Part shown: piece after piece, positions 6,608-63,205 of the stretch
How positions within the stretch are numbered: the stretch's first letter is position 1
Layout of the letters: each line of letters begins with the position of its first letter
Source of the DNA: Actinomycetota bacterium
GTDB taxonomy: Bacteria; Actinomycetota; Thermoleophilia; Solirubrobacterales; Solirubrobacteraceae
Reading direction: 5' to 3'
DNA: 64,000 nt
Assembly (NCBI GenBank): GCA_018268595.1
Contig: JAFDWH010000021.1
Location: 62,001-126,000 of the forward strand
The notes under the pieces: generated by a model
Databases searched by the model: none
What the model saw: only the letters and a program-made list of their open reading frames with translations
Told to the model about the DNA's origin: nothing
Translations under genes and position numbers: made by a program

Positions 6608-7193
<586 letters not shown>

Positions 7194-49980: not shown

Positions 49981-51385
49981 ACGCCAGCCCGAGGGCGACG
50001 ACGGCCGCGAGCGCCTGCAGCGCCAGCACGACCGCCGCGAAGCCCGCCGGGCTGCTCGGCGCGACCGTCAGCAGCAGCACCGGCTCGGCGAGCGCGATCG
50101 CGCCGAGCGGCGCCAGGAAGGCGGTGTGGCGCAGCGCCAGCAGGTACTGGATCGCGAGGTAGGTCAGCGCCAGCAGCGCGAAGGCGACGCCGAGCGGCAG
50201 CAGCGCGTCGAGCGCCAGCAGGCGGTCCGCGCCGAACGCGGCCTGCAGCAGCTGTCTGCCGCCGAACGCGAAGATCGCCAGCACCGGCACGGCGCACGCG
50301 AGCACGATCGCGATCGCGTTGAGCAGCACCCTGCGCGTGTCCTCGCCGGCGGCGTGGCGCCGCGAGGTCTCCGGCACGAGGTAGAAGCCGGCGCCCATCG
50401 CGACCCACACGAGCACCTTCGCAGCGACCGCCGTGGCGCCGTAGGAGCTGGCGAGGTCGGTCGAGAAGCGGTGCTTGCCGGCGATGATGTCGACGTTCTG
50501 CAGCAGCGCGACGACGACCAAGCCGAGGATCGGGATCGTCGCGCCTGTCACGTGGTCGCGCAGCGGGCGGACTGCGACGTCGCCCGCAGGCGGTCCGCTC
50601 GCGGTCGCCGGAGGGCGAAACGCCGGTCCCGCAGGCGGTCCGCTCGCGGTCGCCGGAGGGCGAAACGCCAGTCCCGCAGGCGGTCCGCTCGCGGTCGCCG
50701 GAGGGCGAAACGCCGGTCCCGCCACGGCACGCCGCCGCAGCTCCACCCCGCAGTACGCCGCCATCGCCAGCAGCGACAGCGGCGTGCCGAGGTAGGCGCC
50801 CGTCACGCCGAGGCCCGCGGCCGCGAGTGCGGCGCCCAGCACGAGCCGCGCGCCCTGCTCGCCGACGAGGCTGACGCCGACCGCGCGGTAGTCGCCGGTC
50901 CCCTGCAGGCCGCCGCGCAGCAGCGACAGCAGCAGCCACAGCACGCCGGCGGGCAGCCCGATCGCGGCCGCCCACTGCTGGTCGACGCCGACCGCGGCGG
51001 CGATCGGCGCGCGCAGCAGCACCGAGACGACGGCGACGCCGGCGGTCACGAGCAGCAGCGTGCGCGTCCACGCGCGCAGCGTCGCCACCAGCGCCGGCCC
51101 TTCGCCGAGCTGGCCGAGCACCGCGTCGCGCGCGGTCGCGACCTGCAGCGCCTGCCCGACGACCGACAGGATCAAATAGAACGAGATCAGCGCCGCGAGC
51201 GACCCGTAGTCGTCGAGCAGGCGCGCGAAGACGACCGTCGAGCCGAGCGCGACGACGTTGTTGGCGATCATCGCGGCCGCCAGCCCGCCGGCCCGGCCGA
51301 TGTCCGACCCGCGCAGCGCGGTGAGCCGTCCGCGCAGGGACACCTGCGCGCCGCCGCCCCCCTGCGATCCGGTCGCGTCGGTCAT
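49949..51385 (-). CDS. Polysaccharide/lipid flippase-like membrane protein with repeat insertion
   Basis: Wzx/MVF-like polytopic protein of about 12 TM helices and 478 aa. It resembles exporters of lipid-linked oligosaccharides (AMIANNVVALGSTVVFARLL, ...). Between the first and second halves lies a 45-aa soluble insertion made of three 15-residue units (AFRPPATASGPPAG type). The same repeat occurs in the LeuRS-like gene at 62897. ATG 51385 lies 10 nt after a minus-strand TAGCGT (51401-51396). Substrate unknown. Confidence 0.8.
   Translation of the reverse strand: MTDATGSQGGGGAQVSLRGRLTALRGSDIGRAGGLAAAMIANNVVALGSTVVFARLLDDYGSLAALISFYLILSVVGQALQVATARDAVLGQLGEGPALVATLRAWTRTLLLVTAGVAVVSVLLRAPIAAAVGVDQQWAAAIGLPAGVLWLLLSLLRGGLQGTGDYRAVGVSLVGEQGARLVLGAALAAAGLGVTGAYLGTPLSLLAMAAYCGVELRRRAVAGPAFRPPATASGPPAGLAFRPPATASGPPAGPAFRPPATASGPPAGDVAVRPLRDHVTGATIPILGLVVVALLQNVDIIAGKHRFSTDLASSYGATAVAAKVLVWVAMGAGFYLVPETSRRHAAGEDTRRVLLNAIAIVLACAVPVLAIFAFGGRQLLQAAFGADRLLALDALLPLGVAFALLALTYLAIQYLLALRHTAFLAPLGAIALAEPVLLLTVAPSSPAGFAAVVLALQALAAVVALGLAFSRTARAGRR
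50584..50713 (-). repeat. Three 45-bp-period hairpin repeats inside the flippase gene
   Basis: 40-bp cores at 50584-50623, 50629-50668 and 50674-50713, nearly identical, each separated by 5 nt. On the coding strand each contains GGCGACCGC-GA-GCGGACCGCC, which can form a hairpin with a GA loop. They encode AFRPPATASGPPAG in frame, and the array ends with GDV. Two homologous copies with the same 45-nt period lie at 62897-62981. Confidence 0.9.
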
Positions 51386-57614: not shown

Positions 57615-57635
57615 TGGGTCCCTCACAGGGACCCA
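57615..57635. terminator. Perfect 9-bp hairpin between convergent operons
   Basis: TGGGTCCCT-CAC-AGGGACCCA. The loop contains part of the sulfotransferase stop codon. It can stop transcripts from both sides; TTT precedes it on the plus strand, giving a short U-run for the leftward transcript. Confidence 0.7.
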
Positions 57636-58405
57636 GATGGACGCAGCTCCTCGTACTGCGCGATGCACGCGGCGACGTGCGCGCGCAGGGGCTCCGGGAA
57701 GGCCGACAGGTCGGGGATCTCCTCCATCGGCGGCTCGATCCCCTGCGAGTCCAGCACCCGCTGGTAGAACGGGTCCTCCGCGCCCGAGACGGCGCTGAGG
57801 CCGGTCGCCTCGCTCGACTCCCAGCGCAGCAGCTCCGGCGCGAACGACAGGCCGAGCGTCGCCAACAGCGGCGGCACGACCGCCTGCGGCGCGCGCCGCA
57901 GGTCGCCGGAGTCGACGACCACGTGCGGGATCCCACGCTCGCGGACGTGCGCGAGCTGCCACGCCAGGTCCTCCCAACCCGACTCGCGCAGCGGGAAGAC
58001 CTCGGGGCGGCCCGCGCGCCGCAGCACGCGCATGCGCGAGGCGACCGTCAGGCGCGGGTCGCGGATCAGGAACACGAGCGGTCGCGTCGCCAGCTCCGCC
58101 AGCAGCGGGAACGCGTCGCCGACCTGGAACGTCATCTCCTTGACGACGAGCGCCCGGCCCGTGCCGCGCCCGCCGAGCCCGGAGACCGGCTCGGGCGCGT
58201 CGAGCAGCTCCGCCGCGCGCGCGACCTCCGCGCGCTCGTACCACGTCGGCTCGAACGGCTCGTGCGCGTACCAGCCGACGGCCGGGTGGTTCCAGAGGAT
58301 CCGCGAGACCGCAGTCGAGGCCGTGCGCGGCGGGCCGATCAGCACGTACACCTCGCCGTGGCGCTCGCGCAGACGCCCGGCGAGCCCCGCGAGCGCGTCC
58401 GTCAC
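57623..58405 (-). CDS. PAPS-dependent sulfotransferase family protein
   Basis: The N-terminal 5'-phosphosulfate loop is VLIGPPRTASTAVSRIL; the 3'-phosphate region is VFLIRDPRLTVASRMRVL. Length is 260 aa. GTG 58405 overlaps the sbnB-like stop (GTGA), so it is translationally coupled to L-Dap synthesis genes. It may sulfate the final product or an intermediate; the acceptor is unknown. Confidence 0.8.
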   Translation of the reverse strand: MTDALAGLAGRLRERHGEVYVLIGPPRTASTAVSRILWNHPAVGWYAHEPFEPTWYERAEVARAAELLDAPEPVSGLGGRGTGRALVVKEMTFQVGDAFPLLAELATRPLVFLIRDPRLTVASRMRVLRRAGRPEVFPLRESGWEDLAWQLAHVRERGIPHVVVDSGDLRRAPQAVVPPLLATLGLSFAPELLRWESSEATGLSAVSGAEDPFYQRVLDSQGIEPPMEEIPDLSAFPEPLRAHVAACIAQYEELRPSGSL

Positions 58406-59472
58406 GCCAGCGTCAGCCACCGGCCGGTTCCCTGCTCGCGCGCCGTGCGGTACACCGCCGCGGCGCACGCGACGTCCTCGATCGCCATTCCCATCGGGTT
58501 GAGCAGGATCCGCTCGAACGGCGTCTCGCGCCCCGGCTTGATCCCGCGCACGACGTCGCCCAGCTCCGCGTGCAGGTCCGACTGGCGCAGTCTGCCGGCC
58601 AGCACGAGCTGGTTGATCGTCTTTCTCTCGCGGTTGGCCTGCTCCCAGTCGTCGACGATCAGCTTGTCGACGCCGACGTACACGTCGGGCGTCACGTCCA
58701 TGATCGAGATGTTCGAGACGAACGCGCCCGGCATCAGCCAGTCGAGCTCGATGTACGGTCTCGCCGTCACGGTGCACGGCACGACGACCTCGCCGCGCAC
58801 GACCGCCTCCTCCGCCGTCTCGCAGACGATCGCCGAGAAGCCCTCGCGGCCCAATCCCTCCAGCTCCTCCGCGAGCGCTCTGGCCGTGCGGCGGTTGTAG
58901 TCGTACAGGTAGATCCGCGAGATCGCCGGGAACGACTCCAGCAGCCCCAGCGCGTGCAGCCGGCCGATGAAGCCGCAGCCGATCAGCGCGACTGCCTCGA
59001 AGCCCGGCCTCGCGAGGTACTCGCACGCCAGCACCGTCACGCCGGCAGTGCGCATGCCGCTGATCTCGCCGCCCTCCATGATCGCGACGGGGAAGTGCGT
59101 CTCCGGGTCGTTCAGCACGATCACGGCGCTCGCGCGCGGGATTCCGCGCGTCGTCGGGTTGTCGTGCTTGGAGCCGATCCACTTGATGCCGGCCATCGCG
59201 TGCTCGCCGCCGACGTAGCCGGGCATCGCGATGATGCGGTCGGCGATGTGGCCCCTTCTGCGCCAGCGCAGGTAGGGCTTGAGCGGCTGCGCCGTCTTGC
59301 CCTCGGCGTGCAGCGCGAGCGCGCCGCGCAGCGCCTCCACGTAGCCGCGGATCGAGGGTCCCATCGCGGCCCTCACGTCGCGGCGGGTGAGGTACAGGAT
59401 GTCGCCGGCGCCCGGCTCGGCCGGGGCCGCGCCGCTCGGCTCGGCCGCCGGCTCGCTCTGCGTCGATGTCAT
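58402..59472 (-). CDS. sbnB: SbnB-like N-(2-amino-2-carboxyethyl)-L-glutamate dehydrogenase
   Basis: Ornithine cyclodeaminase/mu-crystallin family. The NAD fold is VALIGCGFIGRLHALGLL. The YLRWRRRGHIADRIIAMPGYVGG region and GIKWIGSKHDNPTTRGIPRASAV resemble SbnB, which oxidatively releases L-2,3-diaminopropionate from the SbnA product. Length is 356 aa. ATG 59472 has GAGGA 6 nt upstream and lies 7 nt after sbnA. The reaction assignment rests on pairing with SbnA. Confidence 0.82.
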   Translation of the reverse strand: MTSTQSEPAAEPSGAAPAEPGAGDILYLTRRDVRAAMGPSIRGYVEALRGALALHAEGKTAQPLKPYLRWRRRGHIADRIIAMPGYVGGEHAMAGIKWIGSKHDNPTTRGIPRASAVIVLNDPETHFPVAIMEGGEISGMRTAGVTVLACEYLARPGFEAVALIGCGFIGRLHALGLLESFPAISRIYLYDYNRRTARALAEELEGLGREGFSAIVCETAEEAVVRGEVVVPCTVTARPYIELDWLMPGAFVSNISIMDVTPDVYVGVDKLIVDDWEQANRERKTINQLVLAGRLRQSDLHAELGDVVRGIKPGRETPFERILLNPMGMAIEDVACAAAVYRTAREQGTGRWLTLA

Positions 59473-59479
59473 GGCTTCC

Positions 59480-60475
59480 TCAGGGGATCGGTGTTAGCGC
59501 GGGCACGGGCGGCACGTCCGGGACCTCCGGCCGGTGCGCCTCGACCCACGCGTCGTCGTAGACGAGGTCCATGTAGCGCTCGCCGCGATCCGGCAGCACG
59601 GTCACCACGCGCGCGCTCGCCGGCAGCGACGCGACGACCTGCTGCACGGCCGCGATCGCCGCGCCGGACGAGCCGCCCGCGAGGATGCCCTCGCCGCGCA
59701 GCAGCTCGCGGCAGCCGCGCGCGGAGTCGAAGTCGTCGACGTAGATCACCTCGTCGATCTCGCTCTCGCACAGCAGCTCGGGCGTGCGGCTGGAGCCGAT
59801 CCCCGGCAGGCTGCGTCTGCTCGGCGGACCGCCGAAGATCACCGAGCCCTGCGCGTCGACGGCGACGATGCGGATGCCGGGGTAGGCGTCGCGCAGGCGG
59901 CGCGCCGCGCCCATCAGCGTCGCGCTCGTGCTGACGGCGGCCACGAAGACGTCGACGGGCTCCTCCTCGCCGAGCGCCTCGACGATCTCGCTGCCGATCC
60001 CGTCGTAGTGGCACTGCGCGTTGAGCGCGTTCGCGTACTGGTCGAGCCAGTAGGCGCCGGGGATCTCCGCCAGCAGCTCGCGCACGCGCTCCAGGCGCGT
60101 GTGCAGGTAGCCGCCGAACGGGTCGGGCCGCTGCACCATCTCGACGCGCGCGCCGAGCTGCTCGAGGATGCGCAGGTTGAGCGGCGCGATTCTCGGGTCG
60201 ACGACGCAGACGAAGTCGAGCTCGTAGATGCGCGCGGCCATCGCGAGCGCGATGCCGAAGTTGCCGGAGGACGACTCGACGATCGTCGCGCCGGGCGCGA
60301 TCGTGCCGTCGCGCAGCCCGCGTTCGATGATGTAGCGCGCCGGGCGGTCCTTGACGGAGCCGCCCGGGTTGAGCAGCTCCAGCTTCGCGTACACCTGCGG
60401 GCCGTGGCTGAACAGCCGTCGCAGGCGCACCAGCGGCGTGCCGCCGATGCACTCGATGATCGACGCCGAGACCAT
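59480..60475 (-). CDS. sbnA: SbnA-like PLP synthase (L-Dap pathway)
   Basis: Cysteine-synthase fold type II PLP enzyme. PLP Lys is in NPGGSVKDRPARYII; ESSSGNFGIALA and GGSSGAAIAA form the cofactor pocket. SbnA condenses O-phosphoserine with glutamate to give the SbnB substrate. ATG 60475 (MVSASIIECIGGTPLVRL) aligns with the usual family N-terminus and has GGGGGA 9 nt upstream; the open frame to 60535 is not needed. Length is 331 aa. First gene of the leftward operon. Confidence 0.85.
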   Translation of the reverse strand: MVSASIIECIGGTPLVRLRRLFSHGPQVYAKLELLNPGGSVKDRPARYIIERGLRDGTIAPGATIVESSSGNFGIALAMAARIYELDFVCVVDPRIAPLNLRILEQLGARVEMVQRPDPFGGYLHTRLERVRELLAEIPGAYWLDQYANALNAQCHYDGIGSEIVEALGEEEPVDVFVAAVSTSATLMGAARRLRDAYPGIRIVAVDAQGSVIFGGPPSRRSLPGIGSSRTPELLCESEIDEVIYVDDFDSARGCRELLRGEGILAGGSSGAAIAAVQQVVASLPASARVVTVLPDRGERYMDLVYDDAWVEAHRPEVPDVPPVPALTPIP

Positions 60476-60535
60476 CCCGTCTCGTCCCCCTTTGCCGTGC
60501 GAGCGCCCTTCCCCGTGGGCGTCGCGGTCCGGCAC

Positions 60536-60586
60536 AGCTTACCGGCCGGCCACAACTTGACAAGCCGTGAATCGGCTGCCTATCGT
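60536..60586. promoter_or_regulatory. Overlapping divergent promoters of the L-Dap and tRNA-synthetase units
   Basis: Rightward: TTGACA (60557-60562), 18-nt spacer, TATCGT (60581-60586); the start is predicted near 60593, about 12 nt before the tRNA. The spacer holds the inverted repeat AGCCG-TGAAT-CGGCT (60563-60577). Leftward: TTGTCA (60563-60558), 16-nt spacer, TAAGCT (60541-60536), before sbnA. The -35 hexamers overlap, so the two transcripts compete or are co-regulated. Confidence 0.7.
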
Positions 60587-60604
60587 TGGCCGCGCAGGCC
60601 GTAT

Positions 60605-60810
60605 GCGCCCGTAGCTCAAACGGTCAAAGGAAACAATCGGGGGATCCGCACGCGCCGTCGCGCGTCAGACATCAAGCCGGGGGAGCTTCGTCTTTTCTCG
60701 GTGTCCGACCGCCGTTAGGCAACGCGATTGCGTGCGTCCCAGACCGCAAGTTTCCTGGAGAGTACTGGCCTTTCAAGCCAGAGATACGGGTTCGAGTCCC
60801 GTCGGGCGTA
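60605..60810 (+). tRNA. tRNA (anticodon UUC) interrupted in the D-loop by about 133 nt
   Basis: All tRNA parts are present in order. Acceptor GCGCCCG (60605-60611) pairs with CGGGCGT (60803-60809) with G1-U72, and discriminator is A (60810). D-stem is GCTC (60614-60617)/GAGT (60760-60763), with GG of the D-loop at 60622-60623. Anticodon arm is CTGGC-CTTTCAA-GCCAG (60765-60781), anticodon TTC (60772-60774, nominally Glu). T-arm ACGGG-TTCGAGT-CCCGT (60786-60802). CCA is not encoded. Between 60626 and 60758 lies an insert closed by AGGAAAC/GTTTCCT (60628-60634, 60750-60756) with internal hairpins. Without it the tRNA is 73 nt. Whether the insert is spliced is unknown; a tRNA-like mRNA leader is the alternative. 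Confidence 0.75.
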
Positions 60811-60853
60811 CTTACAGCAGCGATCTTCGGATTCATGCGTAATTGGGGGAGCC

Positions 60854-63205
60854 GTGCCGCCGGCAGACGACCGTGAGTTGAACGACGCCGGCGGCTACGT
60901 CGCTGCGCTGCTGGACGAGCGCTGGCAGAGGGCCTGGGCCGACGCGCGCGTGTTCGCGACGCCCGGCGAGCAGGACACGGACGGCCCGGCGCGCTACGTC
61001 TTCCCGTCGTGCCCGTTCACGTCGGGCAACGCGCACCTCGGCCACGCGCGCATCTACTCGGTCTCGGACGCGTTCGCGCGCTTCCGCCGCGCTATGGGCG
61101 ACCGCGTCCTCTTCACGACCGGCTTCGACTCGTTCGGGCTGCCGTCCGAGCTGGAGGCGATCCGCCGCGGCATCACGCCGGCCGAGTGGGTCGAGCAGTG
61201 CTGCGAGAACTTCCGCCGCGACTTCACCGGCCTCGGCGCCTCGTTCGACTGGGAGCGCTCGTTCGTCACATGCGAGCCGCAGCACTACCAATGGACGCAG
61301 CACCTCTTCCTGCTGCTCTACGAGCACGACCTGATCTACCGCCAGACCCGCCACGTCCACTGGTGCGACTCGTGCCAGACGGTGCTCGCGCAGACGCAGG
61401 CGGAGGGCGGCGTCTGCTGGCGCTGCGACAGCGAGGTCAGCTTCCGCCCGCTGGAGCAGTGGTTCTTCCGCGCCACCCGCTACGCGGCCGAGAACGACGA
61501 CAACCTCGACACGCTGAAGGGCTGGGACGTCAACGCGCTCGGCGCGCAACGCTCGCTGCTCTCGCGCGTTGACGGCGTCGAGCTGGAGGCGGCGACGCCG
61601 ACCGGCGCGCGGGCGGTCGTGTTCGCAGCCGAGCCCGACGCGCTCGCCCAGGCCGCGTTCGTCGCCGTCTCGCCCAACCACCCGCAGCTCGCCGCGTGGG
61701 TCGGCGAGCTGGAGGAGAGCGAGGCGCTGCGCGACATGAGATCGATGGGCTGGCGCAGCGGCGACCGCGCCAGCACCGTCGAGGTGATCGACACCGGCCT
61801 GACGGCGACGATCGCCGGGATCGACCGGCCGCTGCCCGTGGTCGTCTCGCCGATCGTCGACGCGCGCCACGGCGCGACCGCCGCGCTCGGCTTCCCCGGC
61901 GTCGACAGGACGGACGCGGAGGTGGGGGAGAAGGTCGGAGTCGCGCGCGCGGACGAGGCCGGAGCCGACGGCGTCGCGCTCGCCGTCGAGACCCGCCCCG
62001 CGCGGCGCTACGCGATCACCGACTTCTCCGTCGGTCGCCAGCGCAGCTGGGGCGCGCCGATCCCGATCGTCTACTGCGACGCGTGCGGGATCGTGCCGGT
62101 GCCGAAGGAGCAGCTCCCGGTCGTGCTGCCGACCGACCTGCGGATCGACGGCACCGGCAGGCCGCTCGCCGAGCGCGAGGACTTCGTCGGCACGAGCTGC
62201 CCGTCGTGCGGCGGCCCGGCGCGGCGCGAGACCGACACGCTCGACTGCCACGTCGACGCGTTCTGGACGTGGCTGTCGATCGCCGTCCCGTACGCGGACC
62301 GCGCCCACAGCATGTTCGACCACCCGCAGACGGCCAGATGGCTGCCCGTCACGAACGTGATCCGCGGCACCGACGGCGCCGGCTTCGTGTTCGACCAGCG
62401 CTCGTTCACGAAGATGCTGCGCGACGTCGGCCTGCTGACGCACATCGCGGACGGCGAGCCGTTCACGAACCAGCGCATGATCGGGCTCGTCCGCTTCGAC
62501 GGCAAGAAGATGAGCAAGCACCTGCGCAACACCGTCGAGCTGAGGGCGATGCTCGAGCAGGTCGGCGCCGACGTGTTGCGCGTGGCGATGATGTACGCCG
62601 CCGCGCCGAAGAACGACTTCCACTGGACCGACGAGCCGATCAGGTTCTGCGCCGAGTGGCTCGAGGGGCTGTGGGCGTGGGCGGCGCCGCGGGCGCGCCG
62701 CTGGGAGGCGCTCGACCCCGAGCTGCGCGAGCGGATCGACGGCTCCACGAGACTGCGGCGCAAGCTCGTGACGTGGTGCGACATGGCGCAGCGCAACGTG
62801 ACGCGGGCGCTCGACGCGATAGAGATGAAGCACGCCGTCGAGGGCGTGATCGCGCTGTCGGAGAAGCTGCGCGAGTTCGAGCGCAGAGCCGAACTGGCGT
62901 TTCGCCCTCCGGCGGTCGCAAGCGACCCGCCTGCGGTGAGCGCGTTTCGCCCTCCGGCGGTCGCAAGCGACCCGCCTGCGGGCGACGTCACACTTGACCC
63001 GCTCGACGAGGCCGCCCTGCTGATCGCGCTGCGCCAGCTCGTGCGGCTGCTCGCGCCGATGGCGCCGCACCTCGCCGAGGAGCTGTGGTGGCGCTGCGGC
63101 GAGCAGCGGATGCTGGCGACGCTGCCGTGGCCGGAGCCGGTGCCGCGCACGACCGCGCCGCAGCGGCGGCGGGGCGACGGCGTCGACGCGCCCGTGGGCG
63201 CTTAG
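60854..63205 (+). CDS. Divergent leucyl-tRNA-synthetase-like protein, editing site degenerate
   Basis: Class I synthetase, 783 aa. HLGH (61-64) replaces HIGH and KMSKH (552-556) replaces KMSKS. FDSFGLPSE, the zinc knuckle WCDSC...CWRCD (about 170-195) and VGRQRSWGAPIPIVYC identify the LeuRS branch. The CP1 domain is present, but its threonine-rich motif TTRPDT reads AAEPDA (258-263) and the VPGHD block reads FPGVD (about 347-351), so editing is probably lost. The C-terminal anticodon-binding region carries two 15-residue repeats. GTG 60854 is the first plausible start after the tRNA, 43 nt downstream. It is probably a second LeuRS with a special substrate. Confidence 0.85.
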   Translation: MPPADDRELNDAGGYVAALLDERWQRAWADARVFATPGEQDTDGPARYVFPSCPFTSGNAHLGHARIYSVSDAFARFRRAMGDRVLFTTGFDSFGLPSELEAIRRGITPAEWVEQCCENFRRDFTGLGASFDWERSFVTCEPQHYQWTQHLFLLLYEHDLIYRQTRHVHWCDSCQTVLAQTQAEGGVCWRCDSEVSFRPLEQWFFRATRYAAENDDNLDTLKGWDVNALGAQRSLLSRVDGVELEAATPTGARAVVFAAEPDALAQAAFVAVSPNHPQLAAWVGELEESEALRDMRSMGWRSGDRASTVEVIDTGLTATIAGIDRPLPVVVSPIVDARHGATAALGFPGVDRTDAEVGEKVGVARADEAGADGVALAVETRPARRYAITDFSVGRQRSWGAPIPIVYCDACGIVPVPKEQLPVVLPTDLRIDGTGRPLAEREDFVGTSCPSCGGPARRETDTLDCHVDAFWTWLSIAVPYADRAHSMFDHPQTARWLPVTNVIRGTDGAGFVFDQRSFTKMLRDVGLLTHIADGEPFTNQRMIGLVRFDGKKMSKHLRNTVELRAMLEQVGADVLRVAMMYAAAPKNDFHWTDEPIRFCAEWLEGLWAWAAPRARRWEALDPELRERIDGSTRLRRKLVTWCDMAQRNVTRALDAIEMKHAVEGVIALSEKLREFERRAELAFRPPAVASDPPAVSAFRPPAVASDPPAGDVTLDPLDEAALLIALRQLVRLLAPMAPHLAEELWWRCGEQRMLATLPWPEPVPRTTAPQRRRGDGVDAPVGA
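62897..62981 (+). repeat. Two 45-bp-period hairpin repeats inside the LeuRS-like gene
   Basis: Identical 40-bp cores at 62897-62936 and 62942-62981. Each holds GGCGGTCGC-AA-GCGACCCGCC, a hairpin with one bulge. They encode AFRPPAVASDPPA in the same frame as the flippase array and end with GDV as there. Compared with the flippase copies, the stem bases change on both sides (TCGC/GCGA versus CCGC/GCGG), keeping the pairing. Confidence 0.9.

What the first reader, a model, noticed from the sequence alone, without database searches (positions are those of the whole stretch)
57615..63205. L-diaminopropionate operon facing an interrupted tRNA and an editing-deficient LeuRS paralogue
sbnA-sbnB predict synthesis of L-2,3-diaminopropionate, and a sulfotransferase is coupled to sbnB. 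Immediately divergent are a tRNA with a large D-loop insert and a LeuRS-like synthetase, with overlapping promoters. L-Dap genes normally sit with NRPS or siderophore synthetases, and none is nearby. Inference: a dedicated module that charges a special tRNA, perhaps to feed a tRNA-dependent ligase or to build or resist a sulfated amino-acid product. The discriminator base A73, required by LeuRS enzymes, is present. The synthetase has no appended ligase domain.
Basis: partly seen in the sequence, partly recalled or inferred. Interest (0 to 1): 0.87.

Follow-up and report, generated by a model that had tools for sequence, protein, structure and literature searches.

The report
Private tRNA–synthetase cassette beside diamino-acid genes
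A soil-type actinobacterium carries a tRNA with a large extra RNA domain in its D-loop, a repurposed leucyl-tRNA synthetase and an operon predicted to make an unusual diamino acid; the same tRNA–synthetase pair recurs in related bacteria beside other unusual-amino-acid genes, which points to an undescribed way of loading non-standard amino acids onto dedicated tRNAs.

Summary
sbnA and sbnB pass the curated L-Dap family cut-offs, and they face a class I tRNA carrying a 134-nt structured insert in its D-loop plus a LeuRS-derived synthetase. That enzyme keeps HIGH and KMSK motifs, has lost the editing motif and C-terminal domain, and has a rebuilt amino-acid pocket. The genome also has a normal LeuRS and all five ordinary tRNA-Leu isoacceptors. 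The pair is a family. A tRNA 5'-half pattern searched in 232 Solirubrobacterales genomes gave 12 hits, all beside LeuRS-like genes. The 12 RNAs keep nearly every tertiary tRNA contact and A73, and their helices covary across the insert. Five different anticodons occur. Neighbouring operons change with the lineage but usually make or modify unusual amino acids: L-Dap (window), diaminobutyrate plus HypE/HypF without HypD, lysine 5,6-aminomutase, an AurF-type oxygenase. The same genome has two ArgRS-like/tRNA pairs in similar clusters. Best reading: private synthetase–tRNA pairs that charge non-proteinogenic, often diamino, amino acids, probably for a non-ribosomal use. Charging, substrate and fate are inferred. 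The link to sbnAB is seen once and is not general. Whether the insert is spliced is unknown; retention looks likelier. I found no published equivalent.

The parts
57623..58405 (-). sulfotransferase-like protein (260 aa), overlaps sbnB by 4 bp
   Evidence: Sulfotransfer_3 25.9 bits (cut-off 27) and Sulfotransfer_5 23.0 (23.2): weak
58402..59472 (-). sbnB, 2,3-diaminopropionate biosynthesis dehydrogenase (356 aa)
   Evidence: TIGR03944 357.8 bits > 326.9
59480..60475 (-). sbnA, PLP-dependent 2,3-diaminopropionate biosynthesis enzyme (331 aa)
   Evidence: TIGR03945 406.6 bits > 349.95
60557..60586 (+). sigma-70-like promoter TTGACA-18-TATCGT ahead of the tRNA
   Evidence: 10 of 12 matches; 0.1 expected in shuffles
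60605..60810 (+). tRNA with D-loop insert: class I body, anticodon UUC (60772-60774), discriminator A73 at 60810
   Evidence: cloverleaf and tertiary positions complete; 11 homologues with covariation
60625..60758 (+). 134-nt structured insert between U20 and A21 of the D-loop; branched arm with conserved CAAGCYG...CGGTG core
   Evidence: no Rfam intron or ribozyme match at permissive threshold
60854..63205 (+). LeuRS-derived synthetase (783 aa, GTG start after GGGGGA): HLGH and KMSK kept, editing motif and C-terminal domain lost, Leu pocket replaced
62900..62981 (+). two perfect in-frame copies of a 37-bp GC-rich repeat inside the synthetase gene (low-confidence, lineage-specific stretch)
   Evidence: absent from the relatives; pLDDT near 50 in the model

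Best explanation
The region is a private aminoacylation cassette. SbnA and SbnB make L-2,3-diaminopropionate, which the sulfotransferase-like protein may modify (predicted from families). The LeuRS-derived enzyme keeps the class I ATP site but has a new amino-acid pocket and no leucine proofreading motif. It activates that diamino acid, or a derivative, and esterifies it to the tRNA encoded just upstream (inferred). The tRNA carries an extra folded RNA domain at the variable position of the D-loop, which leaves the core tertiary contacts intact. The domain most likely stays in the mature RNA, marks the tRNA for its private synthetase and keeps it away from normal LeuRS, EF-Tu or the ribosome (inferred). 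The charged tRNA then gives its residue to a non-ribosomal acceptor, as Ile-tRNA does with the synthetase-like SbzA (inferred by analogy). The window is one member of a family whose synthetase-tRNA part is constant while the amino-acid operon changes.
For: (1) 12 of 12 pattern hits for the tRNA in 232 genomes lie beside LeuRS-like genes: upstream, downstream or divergent. (2) RNA covariation spans the insert: D-stem C-G to U-A, four of five anticodon-stem pairs compensatory, an insert arm too; tertiary positions 8, 14, 15, 18, 19, 48 and the T-loop core are invariant. (3) A73 in 12 of 12. (4) The LeuRS-like family forms one clade far from canonical LeuRS (branch 4.4); HIGH and KMSK intact in all but one member, editing motif lost in all, and pocket positions vary by lineage. 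(5) Canonical LeuRS, all five normal tRNA-Leu and tRNA-Glu(UUC) are present in the same genome. (6) tRNA-bearing neighbours: L-Dap genes (window), diaminobutyrate transaminase + HypE/HypF without HypD, lysine 5,6-aminomutase with an ArgRS-like gene, AurF-type oxygenase. (7) Independent ArgRS-like/tRNA pairs in the same genome: one with lysine 5,6-aminomutase, one with methyltransferases and a DdaF-like ligase. (8) Model: LeuRS fold over residues 13-765 = E. coli 3-794 of 860, so no C-terminal tRNA-binding domain.
Against: sbnAB occurs beside the pair in one genome only, so L-Dap as substrate rests on one neighbourhood plus analogy. In the Conexibacter-type loci the neighbours (aldolase family, alcohol dehydrogenase, HAD phosphatase) point to no clear diamino acid. 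One LeuRS-like protein (G035) has lost HIGH and KMSK yet stays beside the tRNA, so the protein may have a role other than charging. A 26-member clade has the synthetase with a threonine-synthase-like gene and no such tRNA nearby. No acceptor enzyme is identified in the window. An anticodon loop with U33 and a purine at 37 is kept, which decoding would also require.
Confidence: 0.6

Rival explanations
1. Natural genetic-code expansion: the insert is removed or tolerated, and the tRNA delivers its non-standard amino acid to the ribosome at a rare codon.
For: A seven-base anticodon loop with U33 and a purine at 37 is kept in all 12. The codons the five anticodons would read are rare in the genes near them: GAA 2.4, CUA 0.3, CAA 0.9, UUA 0.6, AGG 2.2 per 1000.
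Against: Ordinary tRNAs for Leu and for Glu(UUC) exist in the window's genome, so codons would be ambiguous. The anticodon changes between lineages. The cognate codon is not enriched in the window's module genes. U34 would also read frequent G-ending codons.
Confidence: 0.12
2. The tRNA and LeuRS-like protein form a working pair, but sbnAB is an unrelated neighbour and the substrate is another amino acid, such as a branched or hydroxy amino acid.
For: sbnAB is beside the pair in one genome only. Other members have different neighbours.
Against: Several tRNA-bearing lineages independently place amino-acid operons next to or divergent from the pair, and two of these make other diamino acids.
Confidence: 0.2
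3. Regulatory tRNA mimic: the RNA is a leader or sensor that controls expression of the synthetase or of the operon, rather than a substrate.
For: In nine of the 12 loci the RNA lies upstream of the synthetase gene on the same strand. The G035 protein lacks catalytic motifs yet keeps the RNA.
Against: The RNA is downstream of the gene in two loci and divergent in a third, so it cannot be a leader there. Acceptor stem, A73 and the tertiary contacts are conserved.
Confidence: 0.1
4. The insert is an intron of an undescribed splicing type, and the spliced RNA is a normal-sized tRNA. This concerns RNA maturation and is compatible with either use of the charged tRNA.
For: Removing it leaves a standard 73-74-nt tRNA. 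Short near-repeats flank it.
Against: No group I or II match even at permissive thresholds. The insert sits at the one D-loop site where length naturally varies. The insert itself is conserved in structure.
Confidence: 0.25
5. Self-resistance: the LeuRS-like protein is an inhibitor-insensitive spare LeuRS, like AgnB2 for agrocin 84.
For: The closest Foldseek match is AgnB2 LeuRS.
Against: The leucine pocket, the editing site and the C-terminal domain are all altered or absent. It has its own non-Leu tRNA, and it is present in about 47 genomes without any common toxin cluster seen.
Confidence: 0.04

Closest known systems
Pyrrolysine cassette (pylT, pylS, pylBCD)
   Same: Biosynthesis genes, a dedicated synthetase and its dedicated tRNA lie together.
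   Different: LeuRS-derived class I enzyme, not class II PylRS; tRNA of normal cloverleaf with a ~140-nt D-loop domain; anticodon is not CUA and varies between lineages; no evidence of ribosomal use.
Synthetase-like enzymes of natural-product clusters: SbzA (IleRS-like), AcmF (AlaRS-like), VlmL/VlmA (seryl-tRNA)
   Same: A synthetase paralogue in a biosynthetic setting; aminoacyl-tRNA as donor is the proposed use (PMC12945691, PMC9437257).
   Different: Those use standard amino acids and ordinary tRNAs; a text search of the review finds no 'tRNA gene' or 'non-proteinogenic'. Here the tRNA is private and structurally new.
Non-canonical tRNAs (tRNA-Sec, allo-tRNAs, tRNA-Pyl)
   Same: tRNAs with unusual shape matched to special amino acids.
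   Different: Those alter stem lengths or loops; a text search of the 2020 review showed no large D-loop insertion (PMC7609411).
Duplicated LeuRS of archaea (LeuRS-I, LeuRS2)
   Same: LeuRS paralogues with altered function; LeuRS-I has a disrupted editing domain (PMC9437257).
   Different: Archaeal, still bind tRNA-Leu, and no dedicated tRNA or amino-acid operon is described.
Staphyloferrin B sbnA/sbnB
   Same: Two-gene L-Dap synthesis.
   Different: No gene of NRPS size in the window and no siderophore synthetase noticed; the divergent partners are a tRNA and a synthetase.

Membership tests
Canonical bacterial leucyl-tRNA synthetase | Passes the curated leuS_bact cut-off | tested here: not met
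   423.9 bits against 548.4
Canonical bacterial leucyl-tRNA synthetase | Class I signature motifs HIGH and KMSK | tested here: met
   HLGH and KMSK in the window; intact in all members but G035
Canonical bacterial leucyl-tRNA synthetase | Threonine-rich editing motif (TTRPDT) | tested here: not met
   FAAEPDA in the window, FTPHADA-like in relatives
Canonical bacterial leucyl-tRNA synthetase | C-terminal tRNA-binding domain | tested here: not met
   Model aligns to E. coli LeuRS 3-794 of 860; protein ends after the anticodon-binding domain
Canonical bacterial leucyl-tRNA synthetase | Charges tRNA-Leu with leucine | not testable with these tools
   needs an aminoacylation assay
tRNA-Leu (class II) | Long variable arm | tested here: not met
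   variable loop 4 nt in the window, 4-5 nt in all 12
tRNA-Leu (class II) | A73 discriminator | tested here: met
   A73 in 12 of 12
tRNA (general) | Cloverleaf helices with covariation and core tertiary positions | tested here: met
L-2,3-diaminopropionate synthesis (SbnA/SbnB) | Both proteins pass the equivalog cut-offs | tested here: met
Pyl-type code-expansion cassette | PylRS homologue and CUA-anticodon tRNA | tested here: not met
   LeuRS fold; anticodon UUC in the window
Pyl-type code-expansion cassette | Residue inserted by the ribosome | not testable with these tools
   needs proteomics
SbzA/AcmF-type aminoacyl-tRNA-dependent biosynthesis | Synthetase-like protein in a cluster that makes a small molecule | tested here: inconclusive
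   amino-acid operons adjacent, no acceptor or final product identified
Group I/II intron in a tRNA | Recognised catalytic core | tested here: not met
   no Rfam intron match at E up to 5-10

The most novel reading that the evidence does not exclude
Solirubrobacterales hold a set of evolvable, naturally orthogonal synthetase-tRNA pairs that charge diamino and other non-standard amino acids, and at least some of these tRNAs deliver their residue to the ribosome at rare codons: natural genetic-code expansion beyond selenocysteine and pyrrolysine.
Probability: 0.1. Interest if true: 0.98.

Novelty: categorically new. Interest (0 to 1): 0.9.

Why it matters
I know of no bacterial tRNA with a ~140-nt folded domain in its D-loop, and no LeuRS-derived synthetase with its own private tRNA. 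If the pairs charge diaminopropionate, diaminobutyrate or similar residues, they would be new natural aminoacyl-tRNAs, a new route for putting such residues into metabolites, lipids, cell wall or proteins, and a source of orthogonal pairs for genetic-code engineering. The standard tRNA finder misses or misreads the RNA, so the whole class is probably absent from current annotation. It is directly testable, because one copy is in the cultivated, fully sequenced type strain Conexibacter woesei DSM 14684.

Tried and rejected
Chance tRNA half-match: rejected by 12 homologues and covariation. mRNA leader: rejected as a general reading because the RNA is downstream in two loci and divergent in a third. 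Known intron or ribozyme: no Rfam match. Pseudogene: the synthetase ORF is intact and conserved across the family. Spread outside the order: no LeuRS-like hit in 395 other phylum genomes at E <= 1e-200, and no tRNA-pattern hit among the class genomes sampled outside the order; neither search is exhaustive. A hidden 3'-half tRNA in two genomes with the tRNA-less clade: none seen. First structure prediction with 9 sequences was poor (pLDDT 51.9); the 36-sequence one is used (88.3). The single-protein genome-contig scan found nothing; the alignment scan mostly returned canonical LeuRS. Literature searches gave no match. Only hypotheses, not shown: docking of modifying enzymes on the insert; peptidoglycan or lipid as acceptor.
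Full report
WHAT IS THERE. The operon on the minus strand is sbnA (59480-60475), sbnB (58402-59472) and a sulfotransferase-like gene (57623-58405). SbnA and SbnB exceed the curated NCBIfam cut-offs for the L-2,3-diaminopropionate enzymes. The third protein only grazes two sulfotransferase families. Divergently, a sigma-70-like promoter (60557-60586) precedes a tRNA (60605-60810) and, 43 nt after A73, a 783-aa synthetase gene (60854-63205). No open frame of NRPS size lies in the window.

THE tRNA. ARAGORN reports nothing and Rfam scores only the 3' part, because 134 nt separate U20 from A21. The rest is a complete class I tRNA: acceptor GCGCCCG/CGGGCGU, D-stem, five-pair anticodon stem with loop CUUUCAA (anticodon UUC), a 4-nt variable loop, T-arm and A73. 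Twelve such RNAs were collected. Their helices pair in 96.7% of cells, with 40 double changes against 14.7 in shuffles and at most 9 when partners are slid. Four of five anticodon-stem pairs show compensatory changes, and so do pairs of an arm inside the insert. The insert lies where D-loops naturally vary in length and spares U8-A14-A21, A15-U48, G18-U55 and G19-C56 (A21 in 11 of 12). I therefore favour a retained domain over an intron; no known intron is recognised. The body resembles tRNA-Arg or tRNA-Asp, not tRNA-Leu.

THE SYNTHETASE. It is a LeuRS relative below the family cut-off. A confident model (pLDDT 88.3) has the LeuRS fold (Z 44.7 to E. coli LeuRS, residues 3-794 of 860) and lacks the C-terminal domain. 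HIGH and KMSK are kept. The threonine-rich editing motif is gone. Residues that, from published LeuRS structures (my knowledge), line the leucine pocket are replaced, and the replacements differ between lineages: for example DTFVDSSWYF becomes DCHVDAFWTW in the window, DCHVDGLWQW in Conexibacter and DCHFDALWLW in the tRNA-less clade. The genome has a separate canonical LeuRS and ordinary tRNA-Leu for all five anticodons plus tRNA-Glu(UUC).

DISTRIBUTION. Searching 232 Solirubrobacterales genomes gave two well-separated score classes: LeuRS-like proteins (full-length ones above 900 bits, about 47 genomes including fragments) and canonical LeuRS (below about 550 bits). A pattern from the tRNA 5' half hit 12 places in the same genomes; 11 are beside full LeuRS-like genes and one beside a degenerate LeuRS-like gene. 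Of 395 other genomes sampled across the phylum none had a LeuRS-like match at E <= 1e-200. In the tree the LeuRS-like proteins form one clade; tRNA-bearing lineages are basal, and a single well-supported clade of 26 lacks the tRNA (the window branch is long and its exact place unsure). That clade instead has a third threonine-synthase paralogue beside the synthetase in most loci examined.

NEIGHBOURS. Each tRNA-bearing lineage lies beside a different set of enzymes. Window: SbnA/SbnB, anticodon UUC. G098 and G175: diaminobutyrate transaminase, HypE, HypF and an isochorismatase-type hydrolase, anticodon UUG; these genomes show no HypD, so HypE/HypF are unlikely to serve a NiFe hydrogenase (the assemblies are about 92% complete). 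Conexibacter-type: dihydrodipicolinate-synthase-family aldolase, zinc alcohol dehydrogenase and HAD phosphatase, anticodon UAG. G205: AurF-type diiron oxygenase and a GNAT protein in overlapping frames, anticodon UAA. G035: lysine 5,6-aminomutase with its reactivase, an ArgRS-like protein, a LeuRS-like protein without HIGH and KMSK, and anticodon CCU. The window's genome also has an ArgRS-like gene with lysine 5,6-aminomutase genes and an odd, uninterrupted tRNA(CCU), and another ArgRS-like gene beside the only tRNA-Arg(UCU) found there, with two methyltransferases and a DdaF-like ATP-grasp ligase. Private or semi-private synthetase-tRNA pairs in amino-acid clusters thus recur with two different class I synthetase families.

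MECHANISM. Shown: the parts, their conservation, their pairing, loss of the leucine-type editing motif and pocket, and redundancy with the ordinary decoding set. Inferred: the enzyme charges this tRNA with the product of the adjacent operon (L-Dap or a derivative in the window); the D-loop domain is an identity element and keeps the tRNA out of translation; the residue goes to a non-ribosomal acceptor. Precedent for the last step is SbzA, which moves Ile from Ile-tRNA to a small molecule, and AcmF (PMC12945691). The G035 case, with a LeuRS-like protein lacking catalytic motifs and an ArgRS-like companion, suggests that the LeuRS-like protein has a binding or transfer role besides charging, and is the strongest hint that the simple model is incomplete.

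COMPARISON AND NOVELTY. The arrangement works like a pyrrolysine cassette (biosynthesis genes, synthetase, tRNA) but is not a member: different synthetase class, different tRNA, varying anticodons. It is close to natural-product synthetase paralogues but differs in having its own, structurally new tRNA. I found no description in the searchable literature, with the limit that most subscription papers are not held. I rate the tRNA architecture plus its private LeuRS-derived partner as categorically new; each ingredient alone would be a new variant.

LIMITS. No aminoacylation, size or product data. The link to sbnAB is a single case. Gene calls outside the window are my own ORF predictions supported by family hits. 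The rare-codon argument is weak, because U34 also reads G-ending codons.

Noticed in passing
L208 5104-6813 (-) and tRNA 7021-7096 (+) (G000:C26): ArgRS-like gene with lysine 5,6-aminomutase alpha/beta and KamB, divergent from an unusual tRNA(CCU) with D-stem CCUC/GAGG.
   Followed up: partly
L207 4655-9263 (-) (G000:C4) and L209 8271-12884 (+) (G003): tRNA-Arg(UCU), ArgRS-like gene, two methyltransferases and a DdaF-like ATP-grasp ligase in one run; in G003 the synthetase gene starts 27 nt after the tRNA.
   Followed up: partly
L148 2575-8001 and L149 12271-17677: HypE and HypF beside diaminobutyrate transaminase in genomes without detectable HypD: possible hydrogenase-independent cyano or carbamoyl chemistry on an amino acid.
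   Followed up: partly
L151 9323-11083 (+): LeuRS-derived protein that has lost HIGH and KMSK but keeps the neighbouring D-loop-insert tRNA (anticodon CCU).
   Followed up: partly
L025 5692-7026, L152 11303-12637, L154 6642-7952: Third threonine-synthase paralogue beside the tRNA-less LeuRS-like genes; immediately downstream in the g15 loci.
   Followed up: partly
window 62900-62981 and about 50475-50795: GC-rich repeat inserted in frame in the synthetase gene (two perfect 37-bp copies); similar peptide repeats occur in another window ORF, as if a mobile mini-repeat invades coding sequence.
   Followed up: no
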